From Heterotrichella gracilis (lineage: Eukaryota > Sar > Xanthophyceae > Tribonematales > Xanthonemataceae), in the NCBI GenBank assembly GCA_032358255.1, contig JAULBX010005998.1, forward strand, positions 62,001 through 126,000: DNA of 64,000 nt, read 5' to 3'. Below, one piece after another: positions 218-49,170 of the stretch; positions within the stretch are counted from its first letter, which is position 1, and the number at the start of each line of letters is the position of its first letter. Under the pieces are notes generated by a model. The model was given only the letters and a program-made list of their open reading frames with translations. It was not told where the DNA came from and searched no databases. A program made the translations under genes and the position numbers.

Positions 218-255
218 GTACTGAAACATTTCAATTCCCCTCTTTACCTCTGCAG

Positions 256-15854: not shown

Positions 15855-17139
<1,285 letters not shown>

Positions 17140-27372: not shown

Positions 27373-30300
27373 TCATTGCAGCACGCAGCACCTCCCTCCC
27401 CCGTCCCTCCCCTTCACCTCCCTCCCAAGCACCTTAAGCTCCCCTGATTCCGCCATGTCATTCAGCATCCCAACCACCTCCCCAGCCGAGGGCCTCGTCC
27501 CCGCGTCATCCGCCCAGCAGCGCCCAATGAGGGTGCGTAGGGATTCGGGCCAGGTTGCGGGAAGGGGCTGGCGCCTGCCCTCGAATGCCATCTGGCACGG
27601 GGGGAGTTGGTGCTGTTACAATTGGTGCTGTAGCAGTTGTGCTACAGTTGTGCGCATAGCATTGTGTTTATGTTCGCCATCTGCAATGTCATGTTTTGCC
27701 TGCACATTTGTCAACAATATGCACACTGCATTCATACCACATTGTGCCTGAAACACTCACATTTCAATGCATCCATAGTAGTCATTTGTGCGTGTTCAAC
27801 CCACCTCGTGCGCGTAAGCATACGTATCCCAGGAGCCACAGTGCCCTGCTGCCCGGCTCCCAACAATCTCCTTGGAAAACAGCTCATACATGATGATGCC
27901 AAGAGCAAAAATGTCGACCTGAGGAGGTGCAAGGGGTGGAAGTTTAGGTCAGTCCCAGACAGATATCAGCAACGTATGAAGACCCCTCAGCGGGGCAATT
28001 CATGGCCATGATGGCGTGGAAATAGCTGGTATGCGGAGATTTGCGCATGGGAATGGCCAGGATTTGACACCCCATGGCCACAGCGAGACCCCGCTGATGC
28101 AATGCCGCAGCTACTGCATTGCCACAGGCCCCCAAAACTGCCCACCACCTCCAATGTGCCCCCGCTCCACCACCACCACCAACTGCACCATTTCGTTGTA
28201 TGGTTCATGCTTGAGCACTTCTGGTGCCATGTACATCAGGCTGCCTGTCTCGCCAGTCATCTGGTAGCTGCTCTTGAGCACAGGCTGATTGGCCTGGCCC
28301 TGCTCCTGGGTGAGGAATTCTGACGAGATTATGTTGAGGGTGGGGGAGCGCAGGAAGGGGGAGATGGTGGGCCGCCGGGAGAGACCGATGCTGCTGCATG
28401 GTGGGGAGGGTATTATCACTACAATAAGAACAGCAACACATGGCTGTCAATCAAGAGCATGACTCATGATAACCCTAAATGCCCCTAATTGTCGACATGG
28501 TTTCTTTTCCCGTTTTTTAGAGCTGGCAGGGTGTCCACATATAAATCTAATGCCCCTAATGCCTAGCAACGTTTTATATCCCACTTTCAGAGCTGACAGG
28601 ATATACACATACATCCCTAACTCCCTACAGCGTTGGCTGGCCCTTACGTGGTCTCCTCCCCTGCCTCCTGCTTTCCCAAGAATACCAGTGCTGACAGGCC
28701 AAGGTCGGTGATCTTGGCATTGGCAGAGGTCAGGCGGGTACCTGGGAGTAGTGGGGAGGTTGGTACAAGTGGGTGACGAGGTGTGGGGGTCACTGCATGT
28801 GATGACAGGCTGCGGTTGATGGCAGTTGTGTCATCGCCACGCTAGGACAGGTAACAAACATATTAGCAGTTAGCAGCACATACCCGGCAGCACACTGCAT
28901 ATTGCAAACACACTGGTGGGAACACATTGGCCAGTGAGTGCATACCGGTGAGCAGGATGTTGCTTAAGTTGAGGTCCCTATGTTGACCCTAAACCCCAAA
29001 AAAGGGTGTGCGCACCTGTCAGCAGGATGTTGTCCAGCTTGAGGTCGCGGTGCACAATCTGGGTAAAATGGGGGAAGGGGCGATCAGGTTCACAACCAGT
29101 TTTTATTGGCACACAGTACTGAGCTGCCCTTTCAATCACTACAATCGCTGCAAATGCAAAGCCAGCTCTTTCGTGCACCAAACGAAGCAAATATGCCTGC
29201 CCAAACACCCAGTGGCACTCAGAAACAATGTAGCCAGAAGCAATGCAACCACCCCAAAGCGTCCGCACCCTTGACAGCTTTACCAAAGCACAGGCAAACA
29301 CAGCCCAACGGGCCTCGTCGCCGCTCTTCAACACCAAGCAAAAACCCTCCCTAAGGGTTTAGGGTTTAGGGCTCAGTTCGCCAAACCCACCATTGGCTGC
29401 GACCTGTGCAGGTATCGCAACCCCCGAGCAATCTGCATGCTCCACCGCAGGGCGTCCCGGTAGTCGTACAGCGCATGGTGCGCCTCCGCCATCTGCCTCC
29501 TCAACACCCGGGACAGCGGCCCGCCCCCGCACAGCTCCTGCACCACCCCCAGCGACCTGCGCACCGCCTCGTCGCAGGAGTCGTCCCCCACGCACACGCC
29601 ATACACCCGCACAATTGCGCTGCAGGGGTAGGGGGTGGGGCTCAGGGTTCTAGTGGCCGTTGGCCAACTGGGAGGGGAAAATGGCACCATGCGCTTGGTG
29701 ACATAGGGAAGGTAGATGCGAAAATGTGCGCCTCAGAATTAATTGGTGGGCACTTGCAGCGTTTGCCCGCACTCGTGCTATGCATGCTGCGACACCGCAG
29801 CCCTCCGTTTAGGGATTAAGGATCATGATGCACTCATGCTTTTGCGTGCTGCGGAATGGCTGCCTTGGTCCAGGGTTCAGGGTTTAGGACGATGCTCTAG
29901 GGTTTAGGGTTCTCACTCACTCGTGCTCTGCGTGCTGCAGCACCGCGGCCTCGGTGAGGTATGCCTTAAGGTCCTCCTCGTTATCAGCCAAATTACCCTT
30001 TAGGGTTTTCACAGCCACCATCAGCTTGGCCCCGTCCTTCTGGGTCCACCTGCATTGCTCCACAGTGCCAAACTCCCCTTGCCCCAAGTGGTTGACAAAT
30101 TCCAAGCTTTGCAGGGGGATGACGGTATCATCCCGAAATACTCGGTTCATGGGAACAGAATGCATCCAGTTGGGGACCGGCCGGCCCCCCGCCTCGGCAG
30201 ATGATTTCCGAGGCAGGAGGCGGGTAAACCCGCTGATTGCCCGTGCCACGCCCCAAGGGAGGTTGCTTCCCCGCCGCTGGATGGTGGTAGTGGTGGTGGT

Positions 30301-30630
30301 GGTGGTGGTGGTGGCGTCAGGGCTTTGGATTGGCCGTTGAGTAGGCGTGGATGTGGTGGTGATGGCGGTGGCATCGATAGGGCTCTGGGGTGGTGCAGAG
30401 GTGGTGATGGGGACGGTGTCATTGGGGTTTTGGGAGGCCTCCACAGGGGTCCTTCCTGCAGATGGTGCCGTATCATCCCGGGGATTCCAGGCTAGCAGGC
30501 TGGGCAACTCAAGATCGCCAGCCAGAGAGGCAGTGTAATCATCCACCACCGTCCGCACAGCCTGGTCACTGGCTGTGGTGGAGGCTGGCAAGGGGGGGCT
30601 TGGTACCCGCGTTATGAATGGGGAGGTCAT
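27373..30630 (-). CDS. TKL-type protein kinase with CaaX box, array copy 1
   Basis: Seven exons: 29921-30630, 29391-29619, 29016-29058, 28648-28741, 28189-28393, 27805-27918 and 27373-27591, giving 537 residues. A disordered N-terminus with a Thr run leads to the kinase domain: Gly-loop HLGQGEFGTVEQC, VAVKTLK with the ATP-anchoring Lys, helix-C Glu, HRDLKLDN, then DLG instead of DFG, TGSLMYMAPEV, VDIFALGIIMYELF and CWADDAGTRPS. The C-terminus RCCVLQ fits a CaaX box with Gln, favouring farnesylation, plus an adjacent cysteine that could be acylated. It is the most divergent copy: it lacks two introns present in copies 2-4 (before the Gly-loop and inside the activation segment), its subdomain-IX exon end is divergent, and an alternative catalytic-loop exon lies at 28946-28988. 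Activity is likely but the DLG change leaves doubt. Confidence 0.88.
28946..28988 (-). other. Duplicated catalytic-loop exon of kinase 1 (possible mutually exclusive exon)
   Basis: This 43-base stretch has an AG acceptor (TTTAG) and a GTATG donor and encodes GQHRDLNLSNILLT. It has the same length and phase as the main exon at 29016-29058 (IVHRDLKLDNILLT). Only 27 bases separate them, too short for an intron, so a transcript could use one or the other but not both. The variant loses the Lys of HRDLKxxN but keeps the catalytic Asp and metal-binding Asn. It may equally be a decaying exon copy. Confidence 0.65.
29353..29372. repeat. Interstitial telomere-type repeat
   Basis: Two to three TTTAGGG units in an intron of kinase 1; similar units recur near 29876-29912 in the preceding intron. 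Confidence 0.85.
30284..30316. repeat. Coding GGT/ACC trinucleotide run
   Basis: A trinucleotide run inside exon 1 of kinase 1 that encodes about ten consecutive Thr residues in the disordered N-terminal region. Copies 2-4 lack it, so it expanded after duplication. Confidence 0.9.
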
Positions 30631-32713
30631 AGTGGTGGTGGCTGCGGGTGCCGGTGCCGGTGGTGGCTATGGCTGTGGCTATTGGTGGGGAAGGTGGTGC
30701 TGACACCTGCAGGGGGTTTGTGTCGGTGTGGGACGAAGGGAGGCTGTGAGCGGGTGTGATCGCATTGACTTGTCACATGCCGGTGTCAGGCCAAAAGGGT
30801 AAACCTAAACCCGAAGCCCTGTACCATGCATAGTAATGTGGCGCCAAGGGGCGCGTTGGTTTGTGATGTGTTGGAGGTGCAAGGGATGCAGCTAGCTTGT
30901 TGTGGGTCACACATGGTACTGTTACACTGCAACACACACTAGGTAGCAACTTGCCTGTGGTGGCTCGCACCATCCAGAGACACATGAGGGGTTGGGGACA
31001 CTTCGCGTCCCGGCATCCAGTGGTCCTTTGCAAAGTTCACAGGGGAGGCAGTCTGGTGGGCGGGGGCGGGGCACAGTGTGTGGGTGCTGGCGGGTGTGTG
31101 CTGCCGCAATGTTTGCAGGTGGAGACCTGCAGGTGAGCCCATACGGCACCGTTTACGTCAAGGTGACTACTTGTCATTGACAACCCAATAACATGGCAGG
31201 ACGGCGCACCGTGTGAGCTGACGAGCCTGACGGTGTGCATGCACTATGGGGGTTGGGGTGGCATGCGCTATGTTGCACTAGGTGCACTAGGTTGCACACT
31301 GTACACGAACTTTTCACGCGTGAATACGAAAGCTAAGCACCGTTAGTTACTGGAATACACAAGGTGTGCAAGTATGTCTAGTCAGCCCAGATAGTACGCG
31401 TTCTTGTACCCACCGCTGGGTGAAACATGCATGCGGTGTGGCTACCTGTATATTAGGCCAGGTCTGCATGAATCAGCTGGGCCAGAGGGATTAAGGCTAG
31501 TGTCACAACCAAAGTCTGCAGGAAGTCGATGGGCGTAGTCATCACAGCCTTCTGCTGATTGAATTCTTATTCTTTTAAGATGGGCATATGCATGCGTGCA
31601 TGCCCCCGGCCCCGGTGGTTTGACTGTTGGCCTGGAATAGAAGGCTGGTGGGAGTTAAGACAGTGTCCAGGGATGGCGGCAATTAGCCCACTATCAACGC
31701 ACAGAGTCTGTGGCAGACCTAAGTGGGACACATTTCGAATTGCTGCATTTTTATCACATCCCCAGCAGTTCTTTCACTGTCCCCAGTCCCCACTTACCAA
31801 AGGGCTATGGCATGAGCCATAATCAGGTTCTTGCGTTAAGACTTACAAGCATGATGTCTGAGACAAACATGCAAGCTGCTGATATCATGGTAATGATGCA
31901 CAGCGTCACTTAAGGAAATTTATGAATGACACAGCAATGCCCCTAAACGTGTCACAGCAAACAACGGGGGAACCCGTTGTTTTCCCCAGGTTAATGTGAC
32001 TGTCAAATAAATCTTGTAAATCTTGTATTGTTCAAAACTTGTAACATTGGGCCCAGCACACACGTGAAAACTTGAGTGCTACGAAAAGCTAGCAACGTGT
32101 AAACAGCTTTTGGTTCCAACCAAAATACCACCTGCACAGTTGTGCACAAAAAGATGTGAGTTCAAGTAAGCGTGCGAGCACCACCCTTAACAGCTGATGG
32201 CCACATATGCCGATCCACAGCTGCATTCCCAGTGGATGTTTGCACTTGGCCCACGGACTGCGCATAACATTCTGAAAAATAAAGAAAACAAAGATAAATA
32301 TAACGAACGCCAAGGCATGAAAGGCGGCATAGCAACCTATAATCCCCCACTAGAAAATAATAAAAGAAGAAAGAGAACCTAAACCCCGGCGTAAAGGTCA
32401 CCAACAATACTCAACATTCACCATCCTGAGACTCGACAGAACAGTAACCCTGTCGTTTAGAGGCTTTGCAATGAAAACTGGTTTGCATAAGATGATTAAC
32501 CATCTAAGTACCATTGTTCAACATTAATTCTGAAAGCGAGAATGCTTCAGTGTGTTTAATCAACAGTCTTGTGAGCTCAGCTCCCTGAATACAACAGTCT
32601 CAGAATCGTGCACATTGATTCAACATAGTAAAAATTGCATGCACATTGATTCAATTAAAAAATAGTAAGATGAACTTATATTCTTCTCAGGCAATGTGTG
32701 CATCCTACTTCTG
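30631..32713. other. Upstream region of kinase 1, part of the duplicated unit
   Basis: Blocks within 31129-31560 are clearly similar to 36971-37430 upstream of kinase 2 (for example the stretches around 31217, 31320 and 31367), and the first of them also to 43711-43732 upstream of kinase 3. The region therefore belongs to the tandem repeat unit and probably contains the promoter. No gene was recognised. Confidence 0.65.
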
Positions 32714-35700
32714 TCATTGCACCACGCAACATCCCCCTCCGCCCCCTCCGCCCCCTCCATCCCTCCCCTTCACCTCATGCCCAAGCACCTTGAGATCCCC
32801 CGACTTTGATATTGCGTTTAGCATCCCAACCACCTCACCCGCAGAGGGCCTCGCCCCCGCGTCATCCGCCCAGCACCGCCCAATGAGGGTACGCAGGGAC
32901 TCAGGCCAGGTGTCCGGAAAGGACTGGCGCTTGCCCTGCAGGCAGGCCACCTGCACGGGGGGTATCAAATACTTAGATTAAGCGGTCACACGGCAACCGT
33001 TTTGCACATCCTTCATTCATGCGGCACGAATCATGCCAAGGTGCACTCCAGTAAGTCAAAGACCTAACCCTGACCCTTAAACAGCTCGGCATATCCTATA
33101 GCATGCCAACGTGCATCCCAGCGAGTCCTGGACGGAGTTGGACACACACACACACACACCATTGGCCAGCGCTGGTCCGCCCCCGAGGAAACCGTCAACC
33201 TGCGATACAATACTCAACACGCACTTCACATCCTGCACATGCACATGCAGCTGGCTCCACATAGCTATCCCACTGCCCACCCCACCTGCGCTGCGTACTG
33301 CTGCACCTCCCACGACTGCCCCTGAATGGCCACCCTGTTGATGATCATCTCTTTGCTGAATAGCTCGTACATGATGATGCCAAGTGCAAAGATGTCAACC
33401 TGGAGGGAGGAGAGGAGAATGAGTGTATATATATGATACATCACTGGGACTGTACATCCCTCGCACATGGCCATCCACGCCACCAGCAGCGCCACCAGTG
33501 GCTCCATGGCTTCCCCACCACTGCCACCACCACCCACTTACCGCACTGTTTCATTGTATGGCGCATGCTTGATACCCTCTACAAGCACCATCGCCACCAC
33601 AACCTCCGCCACACATGGCCTCTACCCCCGCCCACACACCACCACCACCACCCACCGCACCGTTTCGTTGTATGGTTCGTGTTTGAGCACCTCTGGTGCC
33701 ATGTACATCAGGCTGCCAGTCTCCCCAGTCATCTGGTAGCTGCTCTTCATGGCTAGCTTCGTGGCCTCCTCCACCTGCGCAATACAACTCACGGTGACAA
33801 TTGAGCCGCTTATGTACGCCGGGGGGGACAATCTGCTAGTGCTGCTGATATCACCCTATTACAAAGTAGGAACGAATGAAACCGAATTTTGCAGTGCATT
33901 CACGAAATGCTGTGTCTTGGTTATCCCTGCTGGGTTTCTTGGTTATCTCTGCTGGTGTGCATGGAGATAACATCATATCATGGCTCACCTGTGCCATTTC
34001 TGCCTTGAGGGTGGGTGGTTTGCGGAAATCAGACGAGATGATGTTGAGGGTGGGGGAGCGCAGGGGGATGGAGATGGTGGGCTCGCGGGTTAGGCCGTTG
34101 TTCCTGCAAGAGGGGCAATATTTATAATCATGGTGTTACTTCGAACTCCACTGCGGCAGTGTCCAAGTGCACTGCCCAAGTCCCACAGTGCATGCAGATG
34201 CTCTATCCACTTGAGGCTCGTGTCTACTTATGATGATAGGGTGTGTGCTCGTGGTTGGGCACAAGCCATAGACTTCCCCTGTAAGTGGGTTTGCGACAAG
34301 GCTGCCTTCCATGGTTTCCTCCCCCACAAGTGCTGACAGGATAAACACATGAAGACCCTAAACCCCCTAAACCCTTACATGGTCTCCTGCAGCCCATCCT
34401 GCTTTCCCGTGAACACCAATGCTGCCAGGCCAAAGTCGGTGATCTTGGCATTGGCGGAGGTCAGGCAGGTGTCTGTTGGGGTGGGGTGGGGTGGGGTGGG
34501 GTGGGGGGGGGGAGGTACCGGTGGGTGTGATGGGTGGTTGGGGCACTTCATTGGGCGACTGAGGGACATGTTGGTGCCAGTTGTTGTAATCCACATCCAA
34601 GCAAAGTGACACAATTGAGGGAGATGAAACAGCATGTAGGACTGCATTGGCAGGACCTATTATGTTTCCAGCTTGAGGTCCCTGTGCCCTTCACCCTACA
34701 TAAGGGTGTGCGCACCTGTCAGCAGGATGTTGTCCAGCTTGAGGTCGCGGTGCACAATCTGCAGTGGGGGACATGGGGTTCACAACCCGCCTGCGGCATT
34801 GCTGCCATGCTTTCATACATTCTGCTGCAACATGTTGACCATTCCCCTCAAAAGTCGCCAATGCACCAGCCTACGTGTTGCTGCATGGGTTGACTCCGTG
34901 ATTCCAAGATGCGCAATGCTGGGTCAACATGGCATGCGTGGCACTGTTGGTTAGTACTGTTGGCTGTTGGCAGTGGAAGTAGTGCAATCTGACAGCAGCC
35001 TGTGTAAGGTATGTGTAGGGTCTGTGTAGGGTCTGGAGACATTGGCCGCCACACACACCATTGGCTGCGAGCAGTGCAGGTAGCGCAGGCCGCGCGCAAT
35101 CTGCGTACTCCATCGCAGGGCGTCCCGGTAGTCATACTGTGCTTGATGCGCCTTCCTACTGTGCTTCCGCACAGCCCCTGACAAGGTCCCCCCCTCGCAG
35201 TATTCCTCCACCAGCTTGAGGGACTTGCGAGCAGTTTTCCCTGTAGATTTGTCTCCAAATGCCACGCCGTAGACCCGCACAATGGCGCTGCAGGAGGGGG
35301 AGTGGAGGGTGGGGTGCAGGGGAACGGATGGGGTGCCGTGGGTTGGGGTGGAGGTTGAGGATGGGGCACTCTGCAAGGATGGCCAGATGAGGGGCACTGA
35401 CGGGCAGGTGGAAATTGGCACTGCTGTGGCCCATGGGGACATAAGAGGTTGACTGCTAATCTTGTTAACGCAGGAGTGCATGTCATGCATATGTATATGG
35501 GGACAAAGCGCGGATGAAGCAGTACTGTGACGATTAAACGCACTCGTGCTTTGCGCGCTGCAGCACCGCCGCCTCTGTCAGGTATGACTTGAGATCCCGC
35601 TCGTGCTCCACCAAATGGCTCTTGAGGGTCTTCACAGCCACAGGCATGGTGGTCCCATTGGGGCGAGTCCAATTGCATAGCTCAACTGTGCCAAATACCC

Positions 35701-36463
35701 CTTCGCCCAGGAGCTTCACCGCCTGGTGGCAAGAGGAAACAAGATCAACAGCCTGGTGGCAAGAGAAGCATGCATTGAGAGGGACAGGCAGGAATGTACA
35801 CTCTGACAGATATTTACATGGGGATGGCACCAGGCAGCCGCGTATGCAAGACAGGCGTACAGGGATGTGGCCAGCGTTGGTGGATGCATTTTGCCTTGGG
35901 CGCGCTTGGAAGGTACGTTCCTTATGCGGCCAGGCCATTTGTGTGTGCCTCTGTCCATTTCTTGATTATATTCATCCATTCAGAAATGTACGAAAATTCT
36001 AATTTTTACAGTGTAGCGTCCTCACCTTGAGGTTCTCCACAGGGATGACCCCATCCTCTTTGAACACGCGGCTGACGGAGATGGTGTTGAGCCAGTCGGG
36101 GACAGGCACCACCAGCTGGTCCCCAGAGCCTTTTTTGGACAGCAGCCGCGCCAGACCCGAGAAGGCCTTGCTGCCAAGCCGTGTCATGCCTGCGCTGTTG
36201 CGACGCCCCACTGCAGGGTTCTGAGGCGCCACCGTAGGGTTCTGAGGCGCCAATGCAGGGTTTTGAGGCGCTGCTGCAGGGTTTGGATATGCAGGTGGCG
36301 CCTTATCAGCCTGAGAGGCCCAGGCTAGCAGGCTGGGCAGGTCAAGGTCGCCAGCCAGAGAGGCCTTGTAGTCTTCTATCATGGTCTGCACAGCCTGGTC
36401 GCTGGCTGGGGTGGAGGCCGGTGAGGGGGGAGCCGGTACCCCCCTTGCCAAAGGGGAGGTCAT
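32714..36463 (-). CDS. TKL-type protein kinase with CaaX box, array copy 2
   Basis: Nine exons: 36026-36463, 35544-35722, 35059-35287, 34716-34758, 34379-34472, 33989-34103, 33661-33774, 33286-33399 and 32714-32950, giving 520 residues. The N-terminal 146 residues are Pro/Ala-rich, with repeated APQNPA units, and end in VPDWLNTISVSRVFKEDG. Kinase motifs are complete: LLGEGVFGTVELC, VAVKTLK, HRDLKLDNILLT, TDFGLA, MYMAPEV, VDIFALGIIMYELF and CWADDAGARPS. The tail is a Gly run followed by CCVVQ, a CaaX box with Gln. Between DFG and APE lie roughly 80 residues, far more than the usual 20-35. A relic of the MAPEV-side exon lies in intron 7 and a relic of the catalytic-loop exon lies near 34661-34690. 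Confidence 0.9.
34478..34513. repeat. GGGGT/G-run tract at a splice acceptor
   Basis: Consecutive GGGGT units and a G run lie five bases from the acceptor of kinase 2 exon 5. On the coding strand this is the polypyrimidine tract; on the other strand it could form a G-quadruplex. Confidence 0.85.
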
Positions 36464-38914
36464 AGTGGTGGTGGCCGCAGGTACGGGTGGTGGCTGTGGC
36501 TGTGTACGGTGGGGGAGGTGGTGGTGTCACCTGCAGGGGGGGGGTGTTAGTATGGTTAGCAGGGAGGCTATGAGTGGGTGTGCATAGTCACATGCCAGTG
36601 GCAGGCCAGAAGCAACAGAAACCCTAAACCCTAAACCCTACACAGTAATTTTGCGCCATATGGCGTGCGTTGGATGTGACTTGTGTGCACTAATTGGAAA
36701 TTCAAGAGACGCAGCAGGTTTCTTGTGATTCACGCGTGGTACTGTACTCACACTCTAGGTTGCAATTGCCTGAGCTGGCTCGCACCACCCAGAGACACAT
36801 GCATTGGGGAAGAGGAATTGGGGAACAGCACCCGTCCCAGCGCGCAGCGGGTCCTAGCAAGCCCACAGGGGAGGTAGTCTGCCTCAGGCAGTCTGGTGAG
36901 CACCAGGCGGGACACCACCTGCAGTGTGGGTTGCTGGCAGGTGTGTGCAGCAGCAATGTGGCGGTGGTGGCCTGCAGGTGAGCCCATACGGCAGCTTTTA
37001 CGTCAAGGTGACAGGTCCATAACGTGGCACGGCGTCGCACCGTGTTACCTGACGAGCCTGACGGTGTTGCATGCATATGGGGAGGGGGCTGGCATGTGCT
37101 ACAGTTGCACTAGGTTACACGAGGTTTCACCTGCACCTGGCCTTTTCCCGCGTGAATACGACAGCTATGCACCGTCTGGTGCTGGTATAACACAAGTTGT
37201 GCAAGTATGTCTAGTCAGCCTAGGCAGTAGCGCTCTTACTAGTCACAAGCCGCTGCGTGAGACTTGAGCTGAGGGGCACGTGGAGTGGGTACCTGTAAAT
37301 AGTTGACCAGGTCTGCAGAAACCAGTTGTGCCAGAGGGGTTATGCCTCGTGTCAAGCCAAAGCCCGCAGGAAGTCGGTGGGCGTAGTCATCACAGCCGTC
37401 CGCTGTTTGAATTCATATTTAAGAATAAGATGGTTAAAGATGGGCATATGCATGCATGCACGCGTGCATGCCTACGGAGAATAGGCTGGTGGGGGTCTAG
37501 ACAGTGGCCAAGGATGGCTCAAACTGGCCCACTATCAGCGCACAGAGGGCCGACTTCCCACAAGTGCACAGGTGTGTTACCAGATATGGTGTTCGATATT
37601 CCTGAAGTTGCTGCATATTTTTCACATCCCCAGTCCCCACTTATTCCAAGTCCCACAAAGGTTTGGTCCATAACAGCCTTGACCATTGGTTGATGAGTGC
37701 CGGCCAGGTTGGTAAACGCCAACATTTCAATGCTTTTTGTCTGAGACAAACTTGCCAGCTGATAACATTGTGCTGATCACGCACTATTCCAGGAATCATA
37801 TAAAATACCTGTAAATATCAGAGTAATGCCGGAAACAATTCCACAGCAAACAACGGATTCTCCTGGTGTAATGTAACAAGCCGTACACCTATTGTCCACA
37901 ACTGGGACCAGCCCACACATGCTGAGTGCTAAAACAGCTAGCAACTGTTGCATGACTTGTGGGACCCAAGAGCACCTGTACACATGTGCACAAAAACGTG
38001 CGAATGCACATATGAATACACCACCACTAAAATCCATTGACCACATACGAGGATCCTCGCTGCATTCCCACTGGACTCTATATGTCACCTTGGCGCACGG
38101 ACTGCGCATATATGTGAATACAAGAGGGGGGGGAAAGAGAGGAAGAGGACACAATAAAAAAAATACCCTTCTTACGACATATATTTAAAACACATGCCCA
38201 GGACATGCGAGGGGGCAAAGCAAAACACCCCCATTGTCTCATTTATATTTATTTCAACACATTTGGGGATGCTGCTACGTGAACGACTGCAAAAAATTGT
38301 ACCAAAAGGTGACCAGACTGCCCGTAGGGATAGTGCGCAGCAATTATTTCAGTACATAAAATACTGAGAAAGATGTGGTTTGGGTACCCAGACCTGCGCC
38401 ACTTCCATGAAATAAAACACATCCATCACCTAGACCCCATATCAAAGGTCACATGCAATGCCCAACTATCACCCGGACATAAAGGAACATAGCCTTGCCG
38501 TCCAAAGGCATAGCCCTAAGCAGGTTGATAAGGCATTGAAAACTGAAAACAATTGAATAAATAAATAAATAAATACATATCTACAAATCTACGCAGCCTG
38601 TCCTGGAACAGGCGCATTGGAAGAGGCTTCAGCGAAGTGAAGGGCAGTGATCCACTGTTTCTCCTGCCATACATGCAAATAATAAATGCGCAATACTTAT
38701 ACACCAATTGTGCTGAAAAGCGCTTAAACAGCCTGTCCTGAGCCAGGGCCTGAGTCCCAGGTAACTCCCTGAATACAACTGTCTCAAAACGTGCAAATAT
38801 ATCAATACTCATTTCTTACACATGTCCACGTGTTGTTCAGGTAAAACCTAATAACTACAAAGTAATTGAATATTACTTCAGGCAATACAAAGTTATTCTG
38901 ACTTCCTGCTCCTG
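36464..38914. other. Upstream region of kinase 2, part of the duplicated unit
   Basis: The first kilobase is similar to the region upstream of kinase 1 (see 30631). It includes a telomere-type tract at 36619-36640 and an AAAT run near 38555-38575. Some short open frames occur but none has consistent splice sites or recognisable content. Confidence 0.65.
36619..36640. repeat. Interstitial telomere-type repeat
   Basis: Three tandem CCCTAAA units upstream of kinase 2. Confidence 0.9.
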
Positions 38915-41900
38915 TCATTGCACCATGCAGCACCCCCCTCCGACCCCTCCATCCCTCCCCTTCACCTCATGCCCAAGCACCTTGAGATCCCCTGAGTCCT
39001 GCATGTCAGTCAGCATCCCAGCCACCTCGCCCGCCGAGGGCCTCTTCGCAACGTCATCCGCCCAGCACCGCCCAATGAGGGTGCGCAGCGATTCAGGCCA
39101 GGTTTTTGGGAAGGGCTGGCGCTTGCCCTGATATGCCACCTGGCAGGGGAGGCAGCACGTATTTAGCACAAGGGTTCAACAAGCGGTCACATAGCGACGG
39201 CACATCCAGAGCCACATGAGCCGATCCAGCAGGGCAACCTACTGCCCTGCCCTAAACCCTAAACCTATTGCCCAAGGTCATCCACTTGCACAAACGAAGC
39301 CAGGACAGAACAGCTGGCCACGCCATGTGCAAGGCTGACTGCGCATGGTACTTGGCTGTATGCTGCTGGACGCTATGCTTGCGATGTGAAGCCAGGGGGC
39401 AAACAAGATGCTCCCTGATTGTGACAAGTCAGGGGCAAATGCAGCTGCTATGCGCCACACATGCACACACAGCTCCTCCCCACCCCACCTGAGCTGCATA
39501 GCGCTGCACCTCCCACGCCTGCCCCTGTACCGCCACCCTGTGGAGGATGATCTCCTTGGAAAACAGCTCGTACATAATGACGCCAAGCGCAAATATGTCA
39601 ACCTGGAGGGGAGGGCAGAAGAGGGATTCTAAAATTGCCACTGCTGTGCAATCCCCTTAGGATCACGGGAAGGGCCCCCGGGGGTGACCAACTGGGGAAT
39701 AGGGTCAGACATTTGAATGATCACCATATAGTATAAATGAGTAGCCACCACCTGGCACACGAGTCAGCTGCTTTTGCGGCTAATTATGTGTCCCTCTGCC
39801 ACTGTTCCAGTACTGCCATGTCCACATGTGCAACTCCTCCCCACCACCACCATTGGTCATGGCGTCGCACCAACACCAGTAACCACTAGCACCCCCACTG
39901 GCACCTTGGCCATGCACAACCAACACCAGCACCAACAACGCACCGTTTCGTTGTAGGCCATGTGCTTGAGCACTTCTGGTGCCATGTACATCAGGCTACC
40001 AGTCTCGGCAGTCATCTTGTAGCTACCCTTCATGGACATGTTTGCGTCCTCCGCCTGCGCAACACAGTTCAGAGTGACAAGCATGCTCCGCATAGGATGA
40101 CATCCAAAGGGGTACGCCATGATTGCACGCCATCCACTGGTACTTTGTGATGCACAGATGTTCATAAGTTGACGTTTTACACCCTGCTTGCCAGGTGCTA
40201 GTCCATGCGACTCCTGCCAATAAGCTCCTTTTGCAGATGATGCTTTTGATTTACTGCATTACAAAAGGTTGGCATTTCCCGTGTCATGGGGGGTTTCCTT
40301 ACCCCCCTGACAGGGGGAAGGGACGGGTAAGGGAGCGCAAGAGCCTTTCTTGTAAGAGTAAGTTGGAAGATGTACTTGGGAAGTATCTAACCAATCATGG
40401 CTTAGGGTTTGGGGTTTAGGGTTTAGGGTTTAAGATTGAGGCTCACCTGCGCCATATCTGGCGTGATATCGGTGGTGTGCTTGTGGAACTCTGACGACAT
40501 GAGGTTGAGTGTGGCCGAGCGCATGGAGAGGGAGGTGGTGTAGATGGTGGCCTTGCGAGTGATGCCGTCGCTACTGCGGAGGGGGTAAGGGGGGGTGGGG
40601 GGCCGGCAACAGGGGAGGGTTTGATAGAAGCAGGAGTGTGATTTATTGGAGGTCATGTGACTGTCCCAACTAATTGGGAAGCGGTCTAGGGGAGCACCCA
40701 GGGCCACATGGGCTGCTCTTGTTACTAAGGACCTGCAGGCTAGGCACATTCAAAAATGGTACAAACAATGCCAGGACAGGACTGAGTGGCGCATGCTTGT
40801 GCAAGGTTGATGGCTGATCTGGCTTTTGTGGCTGGTATGCGTGTAATAATAATAATGTAACTGTCCCAATACGCGGGTTTGCAACAGGGTGCACAGATGG
40901 AGCTGCACCTGTAGTCTGCATGCACAAGCAAAGAATCGAGCTAGCACCTTTGATATATGATGCATCCTGATGTATGGCCATGCCCAGTGCCTCAGGTGAC
41001 ATCGATGGCACCACAGCCAGTGTGGAAGGTGTCATACAATGATTGGCACCCACTGAGACCCCAAGCTACGCGCCACATGAAATCCTACCCCTACGCACTG
41101 CATGTGACTCCATCCGCAACATGTATAGAAGAATCAAGGACCTGCCACCATTCATATCCCAGCGCGGTGCGCAATGGTTCACCACATCCTTCTTGTCTAC
41201 AGAGACCACCGCTGACAGTCCTGATGTATATAACATGCATTCCCACTCGAAAGCAAGATTAGCACATACATTCCTAAGCCTTTAAACCCTTACATGATTT
41301 CCTCCCGGACATCCTGCTTTCCCATGAAGACCAGTGCCGACAGGCCAAAGTCGATGATCTTGGCATTGGCGGAGGTCAGGCGGGTGCCTAGGGAGTGTGG
41401 GGACGGGGTGGTAATTGGTACAGATGGATGCTGATGGGTGTTGCCAGTGCTTGAAGTGACAAAGCTGAGGCCCATGCCGCTCATGTGATCACGGCGCTAC
41501 CGCGTGCCACAGACAAGAGAGTTGCAACATCACGTAGGTGCAGCATTGACCAGACCTTATAGAATATTGTTGTCCCGTTGGCTTGTCCCTATGCCCTAAA
41601 CCCTAAAGAAGGGTATGCGCACCTGTGAGCAGGATGTTGTCCAGCTTGAGGTCGCGGTGAACAACCTACAGGGGGGGAAATGGGGAGCAGGGATTAAAAG
41701 TGTGCAAGGAACCCCAAGCCTGTGACATGCCGCCATGCTGGCATGCATTTGCTGAATATCCCCCTGAATTCCCAATCAATCGCAGCCGGTGTGACACGCT
41801 ATGCGGTGCTGCTTAAGAATCACGCCACATAGTGTGTAGGCGCACCATTGGCTGTGGTCCCTACAGGTATCAGTGATAGTGCAGCCCGCAAACAACCTAT

Positions 41901-43217
41901 CAAGGGTTCACAGATCAGGTGTCACTCGCGCCGCACCATTGGCTGCGAGCTGTGCAGGTAGTGCAGGCCGCGCGCAATCTGCGTGCTCCACCGCAGCGCG
42001 TCGCTGTAGTCGTACTGCGGGCGGTGCGCCTCCAGCATCTGCTTCAGGACAGTCTTGGACAGGGTCCCTCCCTCACAATACTCTTGCACCAGCTTGAGCG
42101 ACTTGCGCGCAGTTTCCTCGGAGGAGATGTCCCCAAAGGCCACCCCGTAGACCCGCACAATGGCCCTGCGGGAGGGAGCAGTGGAGGGTGAGGCGCAGGG
42201 AACGGGACTGGGGATGGGGGGTGAGATTAAAGGTGTGCAAAGGTAGAATGTGGTACAAGCTGAGGAAGTTTCCAGACTTAAGAGGGCATTGGAGCAGTAA
42301 TATGATCCAGGTGACTTTGAGTACAGCAACGGCACACCTGCTGCATGCATGGCGTAGCAAGCCACCTGGGCACACACTCCCTGGGTTCTAGGGTTCTCCT
42401 AGGGTTCTACAAGGGTTCCCAAATGCACTCATGCTTTGCCCGCTGCAACACCGCCGCCTCTGTCAAATATGACTTGAGGTCCCGTTCCCGCTCCATGACA
42501 TGGCTCTTGAGGGTCTTCACGGCCACGGTCAAGGTGGTACCGTTGTCCCGCGTCCACTTGCACTGCTCAACGGTGCCAAACTCCCCTTGGCCAAGGAACT
42601 TTACCACCTGGTGGCAAGAAACAATATCAGCAAGTAGAACCTTGTTGACGGAGGTATGTTGGTATCTGATAGCACGACAACGTCACCAATACTGGCCACA
42701 CCCCAGGTGTTTGGAAGCAACTCATGGTCCTCGTGGAATCCAATGGATGGGATCCCGCTGGGGCACGCGCATGGTAATAAAACACCCTCACCTTGAGGTT
42801 CTCTGCGGGAATGACCCCATCCTCTTTGAACATGCGGTTGACAGAGATGGTGTTGAGCCAATTGGGGACAGGCACCACCAGCTGATCCCCGGAGCTTTTT
42901 GTGGACAGCAGCCGCACAAGGCCAGTGAAGGCCGCGCTGCCCAGCCGGGTGATGCCTGAACTGGTGCGGCGCGGCACTGCAGGGTTTAGAGGTGCCACTG
43001 CAGGGTTTTGAGGCACTCCTGCAGGGTTTGTTTCTGCAGGTGATGCCTCATCAGCATCATGTGAGGTCCAGGCTAACAGGCTAGGCAGATCAAGATCGCC
43101 AGCCAAAGAGGCTTTGTAATGGTCCACCATGGTCTGCACAGCGTGGTCGCTGGCTGTGGTGGAGGCCGATGAGCGGGGTGCTGGTACCGCTCTTGCAAGC
43201 GGGGATTCTGACGTCAT
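38915..43217 (-). CDS. TKL-type protein kinase with CaaX box, array copy 3
   Basis: Nine exons: 42792-43217, 42429-42607, 41937-42165, 41623-41665, 41294-41387, 40447-40573, 39944-40054, 39489-39602 and 38915-39139, giving 515 residues. The exon phases are the same as in copies 2 and 4. The N-terminal 142 residues are disordered and share SLAGDLDLPSLLAW and VPNWLNTISVNRMFKEDG with copy 2. Kinase motifs: FLGQGEFGTVEQC, VAVKTLK, HRDLKLDN, DFGLS, MYMAPEV, VDIFALGVIMYELF and CWADDVAKRPS, so it looks active. The C-terminus is Gly-rich followed by CCMVQ, again a CaaX box with Gln. The activation-segment exon is the longest of the four copies. The catalytic-loop exon relic near 41575-41594 is heavily decayed. 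Confidence 0.9.
40402..40432. repeat. Interstitial telomere-type repeat
   Basis: About four TTTAGGG-like units in an intron of kinase 3, 15 bases downstream of a splice donor on the coding strand. Confidence 0.9.
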
Positions 43218-45204
43218 GTTGGTGGTGGCTGTGGGTGGTGGAGGCAGCTGTGGGCAGGGATGTGGTGGTGTGCAAGTGGTGTGAGAGGGCGGTATGCCAA
43301 CCTGGTGGGAAGGGAGGGTGTATAGGGTGTAAAGCGGTGTGCAGTGTCACATGGCCATGGTAAAATTAGGAAGCCTTAAACAACTGTGGCGTGGTCACCA
43401 CGTGTAGTTTGAGATGTATGTGGCAACCAGGTGCAAGGGGTGCATTGAGTAGTGTCTGGTGCGAGGCACATCATCTGCTCATGATCTGCACAGGCACAGG
43501 CACTCCGCGCTGGAGGTGGCCATGGACTCACTTGCTGGTGTGGTTGATCCGCAGCACACACCGTGCAGAGACACATGGGCGGTTGGGAACAGGGCCCACC
43601 CCCTAATCTGGTGGTGTTTGCAAGGGCACAAGGATGTAGCCTGCAGGTGGCGCTGGCAGCACAGTTGTGGGTGCTACCACGTCTACGCAGCTGCGAGTAG
43701 CAGAAAAAGCCTGCAAGTGAGCCCATACGGCACCAATACTAACATTGGCGGCCCAATGACAAAGCATGCTGTTGCACCATGTATACAATGGCATTGCATT
43801 GCATATGGGACTGCGCAGTACTATGTGAGTGTGCGCGTGTCTTCAGCTGCATAAGAAACACAGGCGGACTAGACAGATGTTGTTATATGTGAATCCGTGT
43901 GAGCAGGACTGGAAGGAAGTTGTTGGCGTAAAGTCGTCACTTCCTGATGGGAGTCTTTAGAGTCTTACTGTTCAAGATGCGGGGTGGCCCAGGCGTTGCT
44001 GGGTAGGCCCGGGGCAGAGGTTGTGGAGCCTGGTGTTCAATGGAGGTGTGAGGGATGGTTTGGCGTGGGCGAAGGAGTTGTGGGGTATGGCGGAGTTGGT
44101 GGCGCTGGGGGATGGCGGCTTGGGTGATGGTGGCGTTGGTGATGGGGGTGTAGGGGAGGGATTGGTGGGGATGGTGGAGTGGAGGCCGGTGGTATGGGCG
44201 GTAAAGTCGTCAGTGACGGCTGGGCACATCCGTTTTGGACCTGTTACTTGTTCAAGGTGCGGCACGCGGGCTGCGCACATCTGGCTGTCGCGCGCATCGC
44301 GGCCGCGGGCCCCGCGGCCTGGGCCATTGCCAGGAAATAACTTAAATTAATTGATAATAGCAGCTTTTTGGTAATATAAAGAAACCTGGACAGGCCCTGG
44401 GGCCTCTTACATCTTATCGCCCTTGATTTGGGTAGTACCAAATGTTTGATGAATGACACTGTGGCCGGCCTCCCAACAACTGTAGTACGGGTCTATGTGT
44501 TGACCTACGACAATCGCCGGTACCATCAGGCTATTGAGTCGTTTTGTTGATTCTTTGTTTTGTTAATCCATGACCACCACCTTCACACCACGCAATTGCG
44601 TAGGTTTGCCAACAAAAATTATTGTAAAATAGTGATTACGTAATCACTATTAGTCGTCGCCGCAGTGGGAATTAACGGCTTCGATATGAAGACAACAATA
44701 CCTCATTGCATGATGCCACCAGCGTGCCACTTTTCTGGCAGAAATTGCGCAAAAACCCACGGGGAACCACAAGTAAAACCGTTTCATCAGACTGCTCCGC
44801 AACTCTTGCAACGCATGAGTGTAGATAATAATATAAGTGCCACCCAAATATTGTTCAACGACTTTGGCTTCACCTTGGATCCAATGATCTTCAAGTCACG
44901 TGGAGAGAGAGAGCAAAACAATAAAAGAACAACTTGACAATCAGAGCCACACCCAAGTGGCCGCAAAGAAAACCCTCACAGATTCCTGCCAACACAGCGC
45001 AGTACCATGTGCCACCAGCAACATGGCGGAAAAGCAATAGAAAAGGACATACCATACCCCGATAACCTGTATATGCAACACAGGAATCATGCAGCACCGG
45101 CCAACATTTGCGGCCTCAAATAATTATAAAAGCCACTAACCTAAAAGACTTTGATAAATCCATAGTGATAAATCATCCTGCAGTAGCGCTGCAAAGGGTT
45201 TCTG
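43218..45204. other. Upstream region of kinase 3 and downstream region of kinase 4
   Basis: A short block at 43711-43732 matches the upstream regions of kinases 1 and 2. Near 44020-44180 is a GGTGATGG-type low-complexity stretch that opens long frames on both strands, which argues against coding. A perfect palindrome lies at 44628-44651. No gene is recognised. Confidence 0.6.
44628..44651. repeat. Perfect 24-bp palindrome
   Basis: The half-site AATAGTGATTAC at 44628-44639 is followed directly by its reverse complement at 44640-44651, with no loop. It could be a dimeric protein-binding site or the end of a small transposon; nothing else around it decides. Confidence 0.9.
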
Positions 45205-48200
45205 TCATTGCACCACGCAGCACCCCCCTCCGCCCCCACCGCCCCCTCCATCCCTCCCCTTCACCTCATGCCCAAGCACCTTGAGCTCCCCTGATTCCGC
45301 CATGTCACTCAGCATCCCAACAACCTCGCCCGCAGAGGGCCTCTTTGCCACGTCATCCGCCCAGCACCGCCCAATGAGGGTGCGCAGGGACTCGGGCCAG
45401 TTTTCGGGGAAGGGCTGGCGCTTGCCTTGGTATGCCACCTGGCAGGGGGCAGCATGCACTTAGCAAGGGTCAACAGCAATAGCATAGTGACGGCACGCCC
45501 AGGGCCACACGAGCTGACCTGATCCAGCAGGACCATAGTTGGTGGAAGGCCAACCACTGACAACAACGATAACAGACCAGAACGCCACGTGCAATGCTGG
45601 CTATTACTTGGTTGCATATTGCTGAAGTGCATGTTACTACCGATGCGAGGCGCTTGCGATGTCAATGTTGTGTGGCCTGTTCCGTGCACATGCAGCTGCT
45701 ATCGCCCCACATGCACACCCAGCTCCTTTCCACCCCACCTGCGCTGCGTACTGCTGCACCTCCCACGATTGCCCCTGTATGGCCACCCTATTGATGATCA
45801 TCTCCTTGGAAAACAGCTCATACATGATGATGCCAAGCGCAAAGATGTCAACCTGGAGGGGAGGGCAGAAGGGTGAGATGCCAGTGCTGTGCAAGTATTG
45901 GGATCACGGGAGGAGGGTGAACTATTGAGGGGTAGGCTATGCCGAGTAGTACGTAATGGTACCAGCGGCACAAGAGTCTGCTGCTTTCATGGCTAATTGA
46001 AGAGTCTCTCTGCCGCGCGCCCAGTGATGCAAGGCACGTCCACGTTTGCCACTCCCCACCACCACATTCATCACCATGGCCACGCACGCAACCACTACCA
46101 CCAGCACCACCACATCCTCCTTCACCCATCAGAACTTGACCACGTACAACCAACACCACCAACAATTACTCACCGTTTCGTTGTAGGGCATGTGCTTGAG
46201 TACCTCCGGTGCCATGTACATCAGGCTGCCTGTCTCACCAGTCATCTTGTAGCTGGATTTCATGGACATTTTTGTATCCTCCTTCACCTGCGCAACACAA
46301 TCCATGGTGACATGCATGATAGAATGCATCCAAAAGCAGTGATATACACGCCATTCAGCTGGATGACAGCTCACTAGACTGATGCCAATAACTTCCTGTG
46401 TAAATGGCCCTCATATCTCAATGCACCTCTGTGCTAGCCCCGTTGTAAGATTAAGCTGGGGGTATACATTCGGCTATGTGTAGGACATATGGTACTAGGA
46501 ATGCAGCCCGCAGCCAACCCTGGCTCACCTTTGCCATCTCAGCCTTGATGTCGGTGGTTTGCTTGCGGAACTCTGATGACATGATGTTAAGTGTGGCCGA
46601 GCGCATGGGGACAGAGGTGGTGGCCTTCCGAGTGATCCCGTCGCTGCTGCAGGACGGTGAACAGGAGGGGATTTATTAGCGGGAGGGGAGGTTTGGACCA
46701 AACAGGAGCATGCCATGGCTGTGCACAGGCTCTCCCTGCAGGTTGATTTGCAACAAACAGGGCGCATGGGTGCAGATGCACATGAGGTCTGCATGCGGAT
46801 GCGGGGATTCAAGACTGCAATCCTTAGATATGGTTCAGCCCTGTCATAAGCCAGGATTGGATAAATGCCCGGTGCCGCAGATGACATCCCTGGTACCAAG
46901 TAGTCTGCTCATCTCTGCAGGGACCGCATGCATTCCTACCCCCATGCATTGCAGGCGCTGTATGCCCAGGCACTGGCACTGGCTCCATGCGCGGCAAGGG
47001 CTCATACCCATGCATTGCTTGTGACTCCATCTGCACTATGAACAGGGCACCATGAAAGGAGCATGGGCTGTCTCCATGCATATAACTGTGCAATCATCCT
47101 CACCCCCCCCCCCCACCCCCCCACTCACTTCCTTATTGCCCATGAACACCAGCGCTGACAGCGTATACGAATGTAAACCCTAAACCCTAAAACCCTTACA
47201 TGATTTCCTCCAGCCCATCTTGCTTTCCCATGAAAACCAGCGCTGACAGGCCAAAGTCAGTGATCTTGGCGTTGGCGGAGGTCAAGCGGGTGCCTGAGGT
47301 GGAGAAGAGCAGGGGGAGGTTGTTACAGGTAGGTGAAGGGCGGTGCACAGCACTGAATGTGGGACGAAGCTGCAGCCAAAGGCACTTGTGCATGCAGCAG
47401 TAATATGCTAGCAATGCCCCGCATGAGGTACCTGAACCCTAAACCCTACACACGCGTGTGCACACCTGTCAGCAGGATGTTGTCCAGCTTGAGGTCGCGG
47501 TGAACAACCTGCAAAGGAGCAACATGAGGGTTCAAAACTGCGCAAGGAACTCCATAAGCATATGGCGGCCAGAAAGTTCTGCAATGACGCCGAATACCCC
47601 TTCGGCTTCACTCAGAGCAACAGACTACGAGGTGAAATGACCAGGTGACAGGGAAAACCTCTGCCGCAACCATATCCCATGAGGAACGTGGCGTTGTCTG
47701 CCAGCAGTGCAGGTAGCCCAACATTCAAGCAGACTATTCATGTTTCAGGGATCAGGTCGCACATGCGCCGCACCATTGGATGCGAGCAGTGCAGATAGCG
47801 CAGGCCGCGCGCAATCTGCGTGCTCCACCGCAGGGCATCTGTGTAGTCGTACTGGGGGCGGTGCGCCTCCATCATTTGCTTCAGCAGCGCCCGCGACATG
47901 GGCCCACCCTCGCAGTACTCCTGTACCAGCTTGAGCGATTTGCGCGCAGTTTCCTCGGAAGAGTTGTCCCCAAAGGCCACGCCGTAGACCCGCACAATGG
48001 CGCTGCAGGAGTGGGGAGTGGAAGGTGAAGTGCAGGGGATGGGCTGGGGGTGAAGGGTGGGAATGGAGGTGGGAATGGGAGGCGGAAGGTGATGGCATTG
48101 CGAGGAAGCGCAGGTAAGGGGCGTTGTCTGGGTCATTGAATGTGGCACATGCTATGGGAGTTTTGAATAGCCTACCATGATGCCACAGTGCAGACGGTGC

Positions 48201-49170
48201 AGCATGCGAATCCGGCACTTGAACGCTGCACCCCTGCTGCATGCATGGAACAACTGAGCATACATCATGGCGGCACCCATGTCCCACACAATGCACATTT
48301 TCGCAAGGATTCCCTGGGGTTTCAAAAGGGTCCAGGGTCCAGGACTGCACTCACTCGTGCTTTGCACGCTGCAGCACCGCCGCCTCTGTCAAGTATGATT
48401 TGAGATCCCTTTCCCGCTCCATGACATGGCTCTTGAGGGTCTTCATGGCTACAGTCATGGTGGTACCGTCGTCCCGCGTCCATTTGCACTGCTCAACGGT
48501 GCCAAACTCCCCTTGGCCAAGGAACTTGACCACCTGGTGCGAAAGGAAGCACTGTCAGGAACCATGCTGGCAGCTGTGCGCATGGGGCTGGCTTCTGGTA
48601 GCACGCTACTGGCCACACGCAAAGTTTGGTTTAATCTCAGTGGATGGGATCCCGATGGTAATAAAACAACCTCACCTTGAGGTTCTCCACAGGGATGACC
48701 CCATCCTCCCTGAACACACGACTGACAGAGATGGTGTTGAGCCAGTCGGGGACAGGCATCACGATGTGGTCCCCAGAGCCTTTTTTGGACAGCAGCCTCG
48801 CCAGGCCCGTGAAGGCCTTGCTGCCCAGCCGGGTCATGCCGCTGTTGTGACCGGTGCTGGTGTGGGGCTGGCCGCTGCTGCTGTGGGGACGCGCAGCGAG
48901 CGCCTCCTCCTGGGAGGTGGTGCGGTCACGCCCCGGGAGTGGGTAGGTGGGTAGGCGGGGGAGCTCCTTAGGTACCACATCCTCCTCCTCTGTAGTGTTG
49001 GGGGCAGTGAGGAGGGCGCTGTTCTGTGCGGTGGCGGGGGCAGTGGGGAGGGAGTTGTCCTGTGGGGTGGGCTCCGCCTGCTCCTGGAAGGGTCCAGCTG
49101 TGGCTTGAGAGTCCTCATGGGTGGGGGTGATGGGGTCTGGGAGGACACCGGAGGACCACGGGGAGCTCAT
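45205..49170 (-). CDS. TKL-type protein kinase with CaaX box, array copy 4
   Basis: Nine exons: 48676-49170, 48355-48533, 47774-48002, 47466-47508, 47200-47293, 46529-46646, 46174-46287, 45739-45852 and 45205-45438, giving 539 residues. All kinase landmarks are present: FLGQGEFGTVEQC, VAMKTLK (Met before the ATP Lys), helix-C Glu, HRDLKLDN, TDFGLS, MYMAPEV, VDIFALGIIMYELF and CWADDVAKRPS. A nine-Gly run leads to CCVVQ, a CaaX box with Gln. About 85 residues separate DFG and APE. The N-terminal ~100 residues are unlike copies 1-3 (they lack the SLAGDLDLPSLLAW block and are rich in Glu, Thr and Pro), while MTRLGSKAFTGLARLLSKKG onward is shared. The start is the first ATG after a TGTGGC repeat in the presumed 5' untranslated region. 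Confidence 0.92.
47131..47161 (-). other. Relic of kinase exon 5 in the following intron
   Basis: On the coding strand this stretch reads LSALVFMGNK, nearly the same as LSALVFMGKQ of the real exon at 47200-47293. It is a truncated tandem copy without usable splice sites. Confidence 0.7.
47175..47199. repeat. Telomere-type repeat fused to a splice donor
   Basis: On the coding strand the intron begins GTAAGGGTTTTAGGGTTTAG, so the 5' splice site of kinase 4 exon 5 runs directly into telomere-type units. Kinase 2 has the same arrangement near 34351-34378. Confidence 0.85.

What the first reader, a model, noticed from the sequence alone, without database searches (positions are those of the whole stretch)
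27373..49170. Tandem family of four protein kinases with conserved CaaX-Gln tails
Four head-to-tail paralogues all end in Cys-Cys-aliphatic-aliphatic-Gln (CVLQ, CVVQ, CMVQ, CVVQ) after a Gly-rich linker whose length varies from copy to copy. Conservation of the last five residues while the linker drifts argues for selection on the tail. CaaX with Gln is a known farnesyltransferase preference, and the extra Cys could be palmitoylated. Protein kinases with their own prenylation box are rare (LKB1 is the familiar animal case). I know of no described algal TKL family of this kind.
Basis: partly seen in the sequence, partly recalled or inferred. Interest (0 to 1): 0.82.

Follow-up and report, generated by a model that had tools for sequence, protein, structure and literature searches.

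The report
Four kinases with farnesyl-type tails
A eukaryote, probably a green alga, carries four neighbouring copies of a protein-kinase gene whose proteins all end in a Ras-like lipid-attachment signal, which suggests that the kinases anchor themselves to a membrane.

Summary
Four head-to-tail minus-strand genes splice cleanly (30 of 30 introns GT-AG) into 515-539 aa kinases with complete catalytic hallmarks, ending CCVLQ, CCVVQ, CCMVQ and CCVVQ. The tail is in frame with the kinase C-lobe in one exon. Of 2001 stop-bounded ORFs in the window, 4 end in CCaaX: these four.

The Gly linker is an imperfect 9-bp repeat, and the tail is no more conserved than the rest of its exon. Constraint is still supported: neutral simulation gives 1.6e-4 or less for all four keeping CCaaQ, and similarity is lost within about 12 nt after the stop.

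Best reading: TKL-like kinases (best solved relatives TAK1, then CTR1), farnesylated on the second Cys and probably S-acylated on the first, like human INPP5A, which also ends CCVVQ (PMC12450637). Prenylated kinases are a known kind (LKB1, GRK1/7, oomycete GRKs, CaMKI-gamma). No TKL or algal example appeared in the rows listed by ten open-access searches. Orthologues, organism, expression and lipidation are untested. New variant of a known kind.

The parts
27373..30630 (-). kinase gene c1, 7 exons: 30630-29921, 29619-29391, 29058-29016, 28741-28648, 28393-28189, 27918-27805, 27591-27373; 537 aa; DLG in place of DFG; lacks two introns present in c2-c4
   Evidence: spliced model; hallmarks; Pfam kinase
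27376..27390 (-). c1 tail CCVLQ (TGC TGC GTG CTG CAA), stop 27375-27373
27391..27402 (-). c1 linker GGGR
32714..36463 (-). kinase gene c2, 9 exons: 36463-36026, 35722-35544, 35287-35059, 34758-34716, 34472-34379, 34103-33989, 33774-33661, 33399-33286, 32950-32714; 520 aa
32717..32731 (-). c2 tail CCVVQ (TGT TGC GTG GTG CAA)
32732..32758 (-). c2 linker, nine Gly codons, three imperfect copies of a 9-bp unit
   Evidence: read from the codons; not listed by the tandem-repeat finder
38915..43217 (-). kinase gene c3, 9 exons: 43217-42792, 42607-42429, 42165-41937, 41665-41623, 41387-41294, 40573-40447, 40054-39944, 39602-39489, 39139-38915; 515 aa
38918..38932 (-). c3 tail CCMVQ (TGC TGC ATG GTG CAA)
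38933..38950 (-). c3 linker GGVGGG, two imperfect copies of the 9-bp unit
45205..49170 (-). kinase gene c4, 9 exons: 49170-48676, 48533-48355, 48002-47774, 47508-47466, 47293-47200, 46646-46529, 46287-46174, 45852-45739, 45438-45205; 539 aa; N-terminal region differs strongly from the other copies
45208..45222 (-). c4 tail CCVVQ (TGC TGC GTG GTG CAA)
45223..45249 (-). c4 linker, nine Gly codons, three imperfect copies of the 9-bp unit

Best explanation
The locus is a tandem family of four TKL-like protein kinases, active by their sequence, that anchor themselves to a membrane. Shown by sequence: a complete set of kinase hallmarks with a long DFG-to-APE segment, a short post-kinase stretch ending KGRD, a flexible Gly-rich linker of variable length, and a C-terminal CC-aliphatic-aliphatic-Gln that is under constraint. 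Inferred: farnesyltransferase attaches a farnesyl group to the second Cys (the Cys of CaaX), the last three residues are probably removed and the new end methylated, and the first Cys is then S-acylated, reversibly, by a DHHC enzyme. The farnesyl gives weak membrane sampling and the acyl chain traps the kinase at a target membrane, so that location and acylation, rather than a recruiting GTPase or receptor domain, place its activity. The linker works as a spacer, so its length can drift. The four copies would share one localisation rule and differ mainly in their N-terminal regions and regulation.
For: Gene models with 30 of 30 GT-AG introns and consistent phases. Pfam Pkinase and PK_Tyr_Ser-Thr in 4 of 4 proteins, best E 1.7e-49 and 5.4e-48. 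Best PDB sequence matches are TAK1, then CTR1. Glycine loop, VAxK, alpha-C Glu, HRDLKLDN, D[FL]G, APE and the late Arg are in 4 of 4. CCaaX ends in 4 of 2001 ORFs, the four kinases. Over tail plus stop the six pairs are 16 or 17 of 18 identical, while from 12 nt past the stop 0 of 6 pairs reach z 2 against shuffles. Neutral simulation (assumed ancestor CCVVQ, assumed base composition): all four keep CCaaQ plus stop with probability 1.6e-4 (last-exon dS), 1e-5 (kinase dS), 0 of 400,000 runs (whole-CDS dS). The amino-acid replacements seen in the tail, V/M and V/L, stay within the motif. A small, flexible, hydrophilic linker of up to 11 residues before CaaX is described as part of the motif (passages of PMC1175975). 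Human INPP5A ends CCVVQ; farnesyl on Cys409 was known and palmitate on Cys408 was shown, and both are needed for proper targeting (abstract and passages of PMC12450637).
Against: No lipid, transcript, protein or localisation data. No orthologue outside this array could be examined (no relative, only bacterial kinases, no genome held). The tail is not more conserved than the rest of its exon (tail pN 0-0.17, last-exon pN 0.06-0.14 over six pairs). Gene conversion between copies could lower tail divergence; the best topology differs between the last exon and the whole CDS. Right after the stop 2 of 6 pairs keep some similarity (z 2.2 and 3.2). Boxes ending in Gln are not always farnesyl only: one table lists RAP2C (CVVQ) with a 20-carbon lipid and PTP4A1 and PTP4A2 (CCIQ, CCVQ) with either (PMC7674641). 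TKL membership rests on best matches, with tyrosine kinases close behind.
Confidence: 0.7

Rival explanations
1. The tail is a chance ending of one ancestral kinase, inherited by the duplicates and perhaps spread by gene conversion; no lipid is attached.
For: Four paralogues are one evolutionary origin, not four. Over the tail pN is like the rest of the exon. Chance C-a-a-X ends occur: 3 of the other 1997 ORFs in the window.
Against: The copies are old at silent sites (whole-CDS dS 0.42-0.85, last exon 0.24-0.60), the 3' flanks no longer align beyond about 12 nt, and neutral retention in all four is improbable. No other ORF ends in CCaaX (0 of 1997).
Confidence: 0.14
2. The two Cys are used without prenylation: S-acylation only (as in the yeast casein kinase Yck2), a disulphide, metal binding, or the C-terminus is a peptide ligand.
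For: C-terminal S-acylation of kinases is known for Yck2 and CK1-gamma (passages of PMC11417247). Sequence alone cannot tell which lipid is attached.
Against: The second Cys is exactly fourth from the end, a1 and a2 are aliphatic or Met in 4 of 4, and the terminal Gln is invariant, which fits CaaX and is not asked for by S-acylation. Same CCVVQ end as farnesylated INPP5A.
Confidence: 0.1
3. The tail is geranylgeranylated, or modified by either enzyme; the anchoring is the same in kind but stronger.
For: One table lists RAP2C (CVVQ) with a 20-carbon lipid and PTP4A1/2 (CCIQ, CCVQ) with either (PMC7674641).
Against: Gln is given as a farnesyl-favouring X (PMC12609287); the INPP5A paper states that its terminal Gln precludes geranylgeranyltransferase I.
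Confidence: 0.06

Closest known systems
CLICK-III / CaMKI-gamma
   Same: a protein kinase with a C-terminal CaaX box, prenylated and then palmitoylated on adjacent Cys; the lipids set location with little effect on catalytic activity (PMC10435254, abstract and passages)
   Different: a Ca2+/calmodulin-dependent kinase of animal neurons, not TKL
INPP5A (inositol trisphosphate 5-phosphatase)
   Same: ends CCVVQ like c2 and c4; farnesyl on the second Cys and reversible palmitate on the first (PMC12450637, abstract and passages)
   Different: a phosphatase, not a kinase
LKB1/STK11
   Same: kinase with a farnesylated C-terminal box ending in Gln, CKQQ (passages of PMC10320760)
   Different: a1 and a2 are not aliphatic and the box is described as prenylation-only; different kinase group (recalled)
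GRK1, GRK7 and oomycete GRKs
   Same: kinases with C-terminal prenylation motifs, also in unicellular lineages (passages of PMC3307776)
   Different: AGC-like kinase domain with an RGS-homology domain (recalled); no RGS match here at E 0.1
TAK1 (MAP3K7) and Arabidopsis CTR1
   Same: closest kinase domains of solved structure by sequence (best E 9.7e-31 and 4.5e-28; CTR1's species is recalled)
   Different: no CaaX tail and a shorter DFG-to-APE segment (both recalled)

Membership tests
TKL-group protein kinases | protein kinase domain with the catalytic hallmarks | tested here: met
   4 of 4 by Pfam and by motif; c1 has DLG
TKL-group protein kinases | groups with TKL rather than with other kinase groups | tested here: inconclusive
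   best PDB matches TAK1 and CTR1 (TKL, group name recalled), then tyrosine kinases (EGFR, JAK2, JAK3) among the 60 rows shown of 1095; Pfam's Pkinase and PK_Tyr_Ser-Thr score alike; no tree was built
CaaX proteins (FTase substrates) | Cys fourth from the C-terminus, a1 and a2 aliphatic, X suited to FTase | tested here: met
   CVLQ, CVVQ, CMVQ, CVVQ; Met at a1 in one copy
CaaX proteins (FTase substrates) | small, flexible, hydrophilic linker before the box | tested here: met
   Gly-rich linker after KGRD; criterion from PMC1175975; judged by eye, the predictor was not run
CaaX proteins (FTase substrates) | prenyl group attached in vivo | not testable with these tools
   needs labelling or mass spectrometry
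CaaX proteins (FTase substrates) | box conserved in orthologues | not testable with these tools
   no eukaryotic genome collection; searches gave no close relative
Dually lipidated CCaaX proteins (INPP5A, CaMKI-gamma type) | Cys next to the CaaX Cys | tested here: met
   CC in 4 of 4
Dually lipidated CCaaX proteins (INPP5A, CaMKI-gamma type) | S-acylation of that Cys | not testable with these tools
   needs an acyl-exchange assay
GRK family | RGS-homology domain with an AGC kinase domain | tested here: not met
   Pfam at E 0.1 lists only kinase or kinase-like phosphotransferase families for the 4 proteins; no AGC kinase among the 60 PDB rows shown of 1095
LKB1 | LKB1-type kinase domain | tested here: inconclusive
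   no LKB1 entry among the 60 PDB rows shown of 1095; no direct comparison was made

The most novel reading that the evidence does not exclude
These kinases are natural counterparts of engineered Raf-CAAX: Raf-like (TKL) kinases that carry a Ras-type anchor on their own C-terminus in a lineage that lacks a canonical Ras, so that the anchor replaces recruitment by a GTPase and acylation-deacylation of the extra Cys is the on-off switch. The tandem array would be a lineage expansion of such self-recruiting kinases. (Raf-CAAX, and the absence of Ras in green plants, are recalled.)
Probability: 0.15. Interest if true: 0.75.

Novelty: new variant of a known kind. Interest (0 to 1): 0.5.

Why it matters
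If the tail is lipidated, this is a TKL-like kinase family that needs no receptor domain or GTPase to reach the membrane. It would add a TKL family to the prenylated kinases that I could cite (LKB1, GRK1/7, oomycete GRKs, CaMKI-gamma). It offers a cheap test of whether a Ras-type anchor can be used by a kinase itself, with four natural copies that differ in linker length.

Tried and rejected
Alternative reading of the last exon: judged unlikely, because the tail is in one frame with the kinase C-lobe and the models need no intron there in any copy; no transcript was seen. N-myristoylation as a second anchor: rejected, since the modelled proteins start MTS or MSS. Linker drift as proof of selection: rejected as an argument (repeat). 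Tail more conserved than the rest of its exon: tested, not found. Relatives in viral contigs: 121 stretches matched a pattern, 0 were relatives. Relatives in prokaryote genomes: 63 stretches matched, 33 distinct loci, all with bacterial record titles, best E 2e-14, identities 21-56% (47% and above only over 34-38 residues); I read the table only. TGTAA, a polyadenylation signal of green algae (recalled), within 700 nt after the stop: 1 of 4 copies, so no support for a chlorophycean origin. Rfam at gathering scores: 0 matches in the window. Yeast FTase screen PMC10320760: its main text holds none of CVVQ, CVLQ, CMVQ; supplements could not be opened. Literature: ten searches of one open-access library; several matched more papers than were listed (for example 461 with 20 listed; 247 with 15 listed). 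No listed title or abstract start named an algal or TKL kinase with a CaaX box. Passages were seen of PMC12609287, PMC10320760, PMC1175975, PMC11417247, PMC3307776, PMC12450637, PMC7674641 and PMC10435254; no paper was read whole. Structure prediction was not run: the spliced proteins cannot be read from the window DNA in one piece, which that tool asks for. My note that all four copies carry a second catalytic-loop exon overstated it; one search bears it out for c1 and c2 only.
Full report
What is there. The minus strand from 49170 to 27373 holds four head-to-tail genes. I built spliced models by comparing the copies with each other and joining exons at GT-AG sites that agree in place and phase. 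All 30 introns are GT-AG (six in c1, eight each in c2, c3 and c4). The proteins have 537, 520, 515 and 539 residues. In a nucleotide self-comparison no part of the window outside the array matched the kinase genes (alignments of 60 bp or more), so no further copy was seen; a protein-level scan of the whole window was not made.

Kinase. Pfam's Pkinase and PK_Tyr_Ser-Thr match 4 of 4, with similar scores. A profile of the four against PDB sequences has TAK1 and CTR1 as best matches, followed by tyrosine kinases (EGFR, JAK2, JAK3; 60 of 1095 rows shown). I call the family TKL-like; no tree was built. The nucleotide-binding loop, VAxK, the alpha-C Glu, HRDLKLDN, DFG (DLG in c1), APE and the late Arg are in 4 of 4, so all look active. 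From DFG to APE there are 74-85 residues, long for a kinase (yardstick recalled).

Tail. The last exon runs from the kinase C-lobe through a conserved stretch ending KGRD to a Gly-rich linker and the last five residues: CCVLQ, CCVVQ, CCMVQ, CCVVQ. In the whole window 2001 stop-bounded ORFs have 20 residues or more; 7 end in a CaaX of farnesyl type and 4 in CCaaX, and these 4 are the kinases.

Is the tail selected? That is unfair: the linker codons are imperfect copies of GGA GGG GGC (three copies in c2 and c4, two in c3, a remnant in c1; read, not listed by the tandem-repeat finder), which probably change length by slippage in frame. Compared with the rest of its exon the tail is not special: tail pN is 0 to 0.17 in the six pairs, last-exon pN 0.06 to 0.14. 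A better control is sequence without coding constraint. Tail plus stop is 16 or 17 of 18 identical in the six pairs. In the 60 nt directly after the stop two of six pairs show similarity (c2-c3 z 2.2, c3-c4 z 3.2), and from 12 nt on none of six reaches z 2 (highest 1.9). A simulation of unconstrained evolution from CCVVQ, on trees fitted to synonymous distances and with an assumed base composition, gives for all four keeping CCaaQ and the stop 1.6e-4 (last-exon distances, tree length 0.73), 1e-5 (kinase distances) and 0 of 400,000 (whole CDS); for any farnesyl-type CaaX 1.5e-3, 7e-5 and 3e-5. So the end is constrained, although gene conversion between copies could weaken this: the best topology differs between the last exon and the whole CDS.

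How it works, most likely. Gln as X is given as farnesyl-favouring (PMC12609287), and a small flexible linker of up to 11 residues before the box is part of the motif (PMC1175975); both fit. Human INPP5A has the last five residues of c2 and c4; farnesyl on the CaaX Cys and reversible palmitate on the preceding Cys are both needed for proper targeting (PMC12450637). In the kinase CaMKI-gamma prenylation anchors to membranes and palmitoylation then moves it to rafts, with little effect on catalytic activity (PMC10435254). By analogy I infer farnesylation, then S-acylation, and control of location rather than of catalysis. That the terminal three residues are removed and the end methylated is inferred from the canonical pathway. 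Geranylgeranyl instead of farnesyl is possible: one table lists RAP2C, also CVVQ, with a 20-carbon lipid and PTP4A1/2 (CCIQ, CCVQ) with either (PMC7674641).

What is known. Prenylated kinases, or kinases with prenylation motifs, exist: LKB1 (CKQQ), GRK1, GRK7 and oomycete GRKs (PMC3307776), CaMKI-gamma. None of these is TKL (group names partly recalled). Ten searches of one open-access library showed no algal or TKL kinase with a CaaX box in the titles and abstract starts that were listed; the lists were capped and subscription journals are mostly missing, so this is weak evidence of absence.

Limits. The organism was not established: spliceosomal introns and TTTAGGG-type repeats suit a green alga but do not prove one, and TGTAA is near only 1 of 4 gene ends. 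No transcript or lipid data.

Verdict.

Noticed in passing
28932-28982 (-) in c1; about 28-54 nt into the intron after exon 34758-34716 in c2: A degenerate second copy of the HRDLKLDN exon lies just downstream in the following intron (c1 reads HRDLNLSNILLTGMHSL). Clear in c1 and c2, not convincing in c3 and c4: perhaps an old exon duplication in decay.
   Followed up: partly
c1 exons 30630-29921 and 28393-28189: c1 lacks two introns that c2, c3 and c4 share, at the start of the kinase domain and within the DFG-to-APE segment: intron loss or gain after duplication.
   Followed up: partly
48676-49170 (-): The N-terminal part of c4 has diverged strongly from the other three copies (dS 1.05-1.87), while its kinase part is closest to c3 (dS 0.39); suggests exchange between copies or a new 5' part.
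   Followed up: no
249-4911 and 51018-55435: A long inverted duplication (pieces of 69-86% identity) lies on either side of the kinase array. One translated piece looks Cys-rich; the two ORFs tested have no Pfam match at E 0.01.
   Followed up: partly
13507-14082 and 12232-12933 (-): Exon of a Ras/Rab-type GTPase (Pfam Ras) and, downstream, an ORF ending ...PPSTCC, which has no Pfam match of its own; joining the two into one gene with a prenylation-type end is inference.
   Followed up: no
21289-21732 and 25161-25772 (-): C-terminal and N-terminal parts of a Sec1/Munc18-type protein (Pfam Sec1), perhaps Sly1 (name recalled).
   Followed up: no
5623-6588 (-); 15949-16449 (+); 63173-63556 (-): DUF3431 protein, HIT-domain protein and PHD-finger protein by Pfam.
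   Followed up: no
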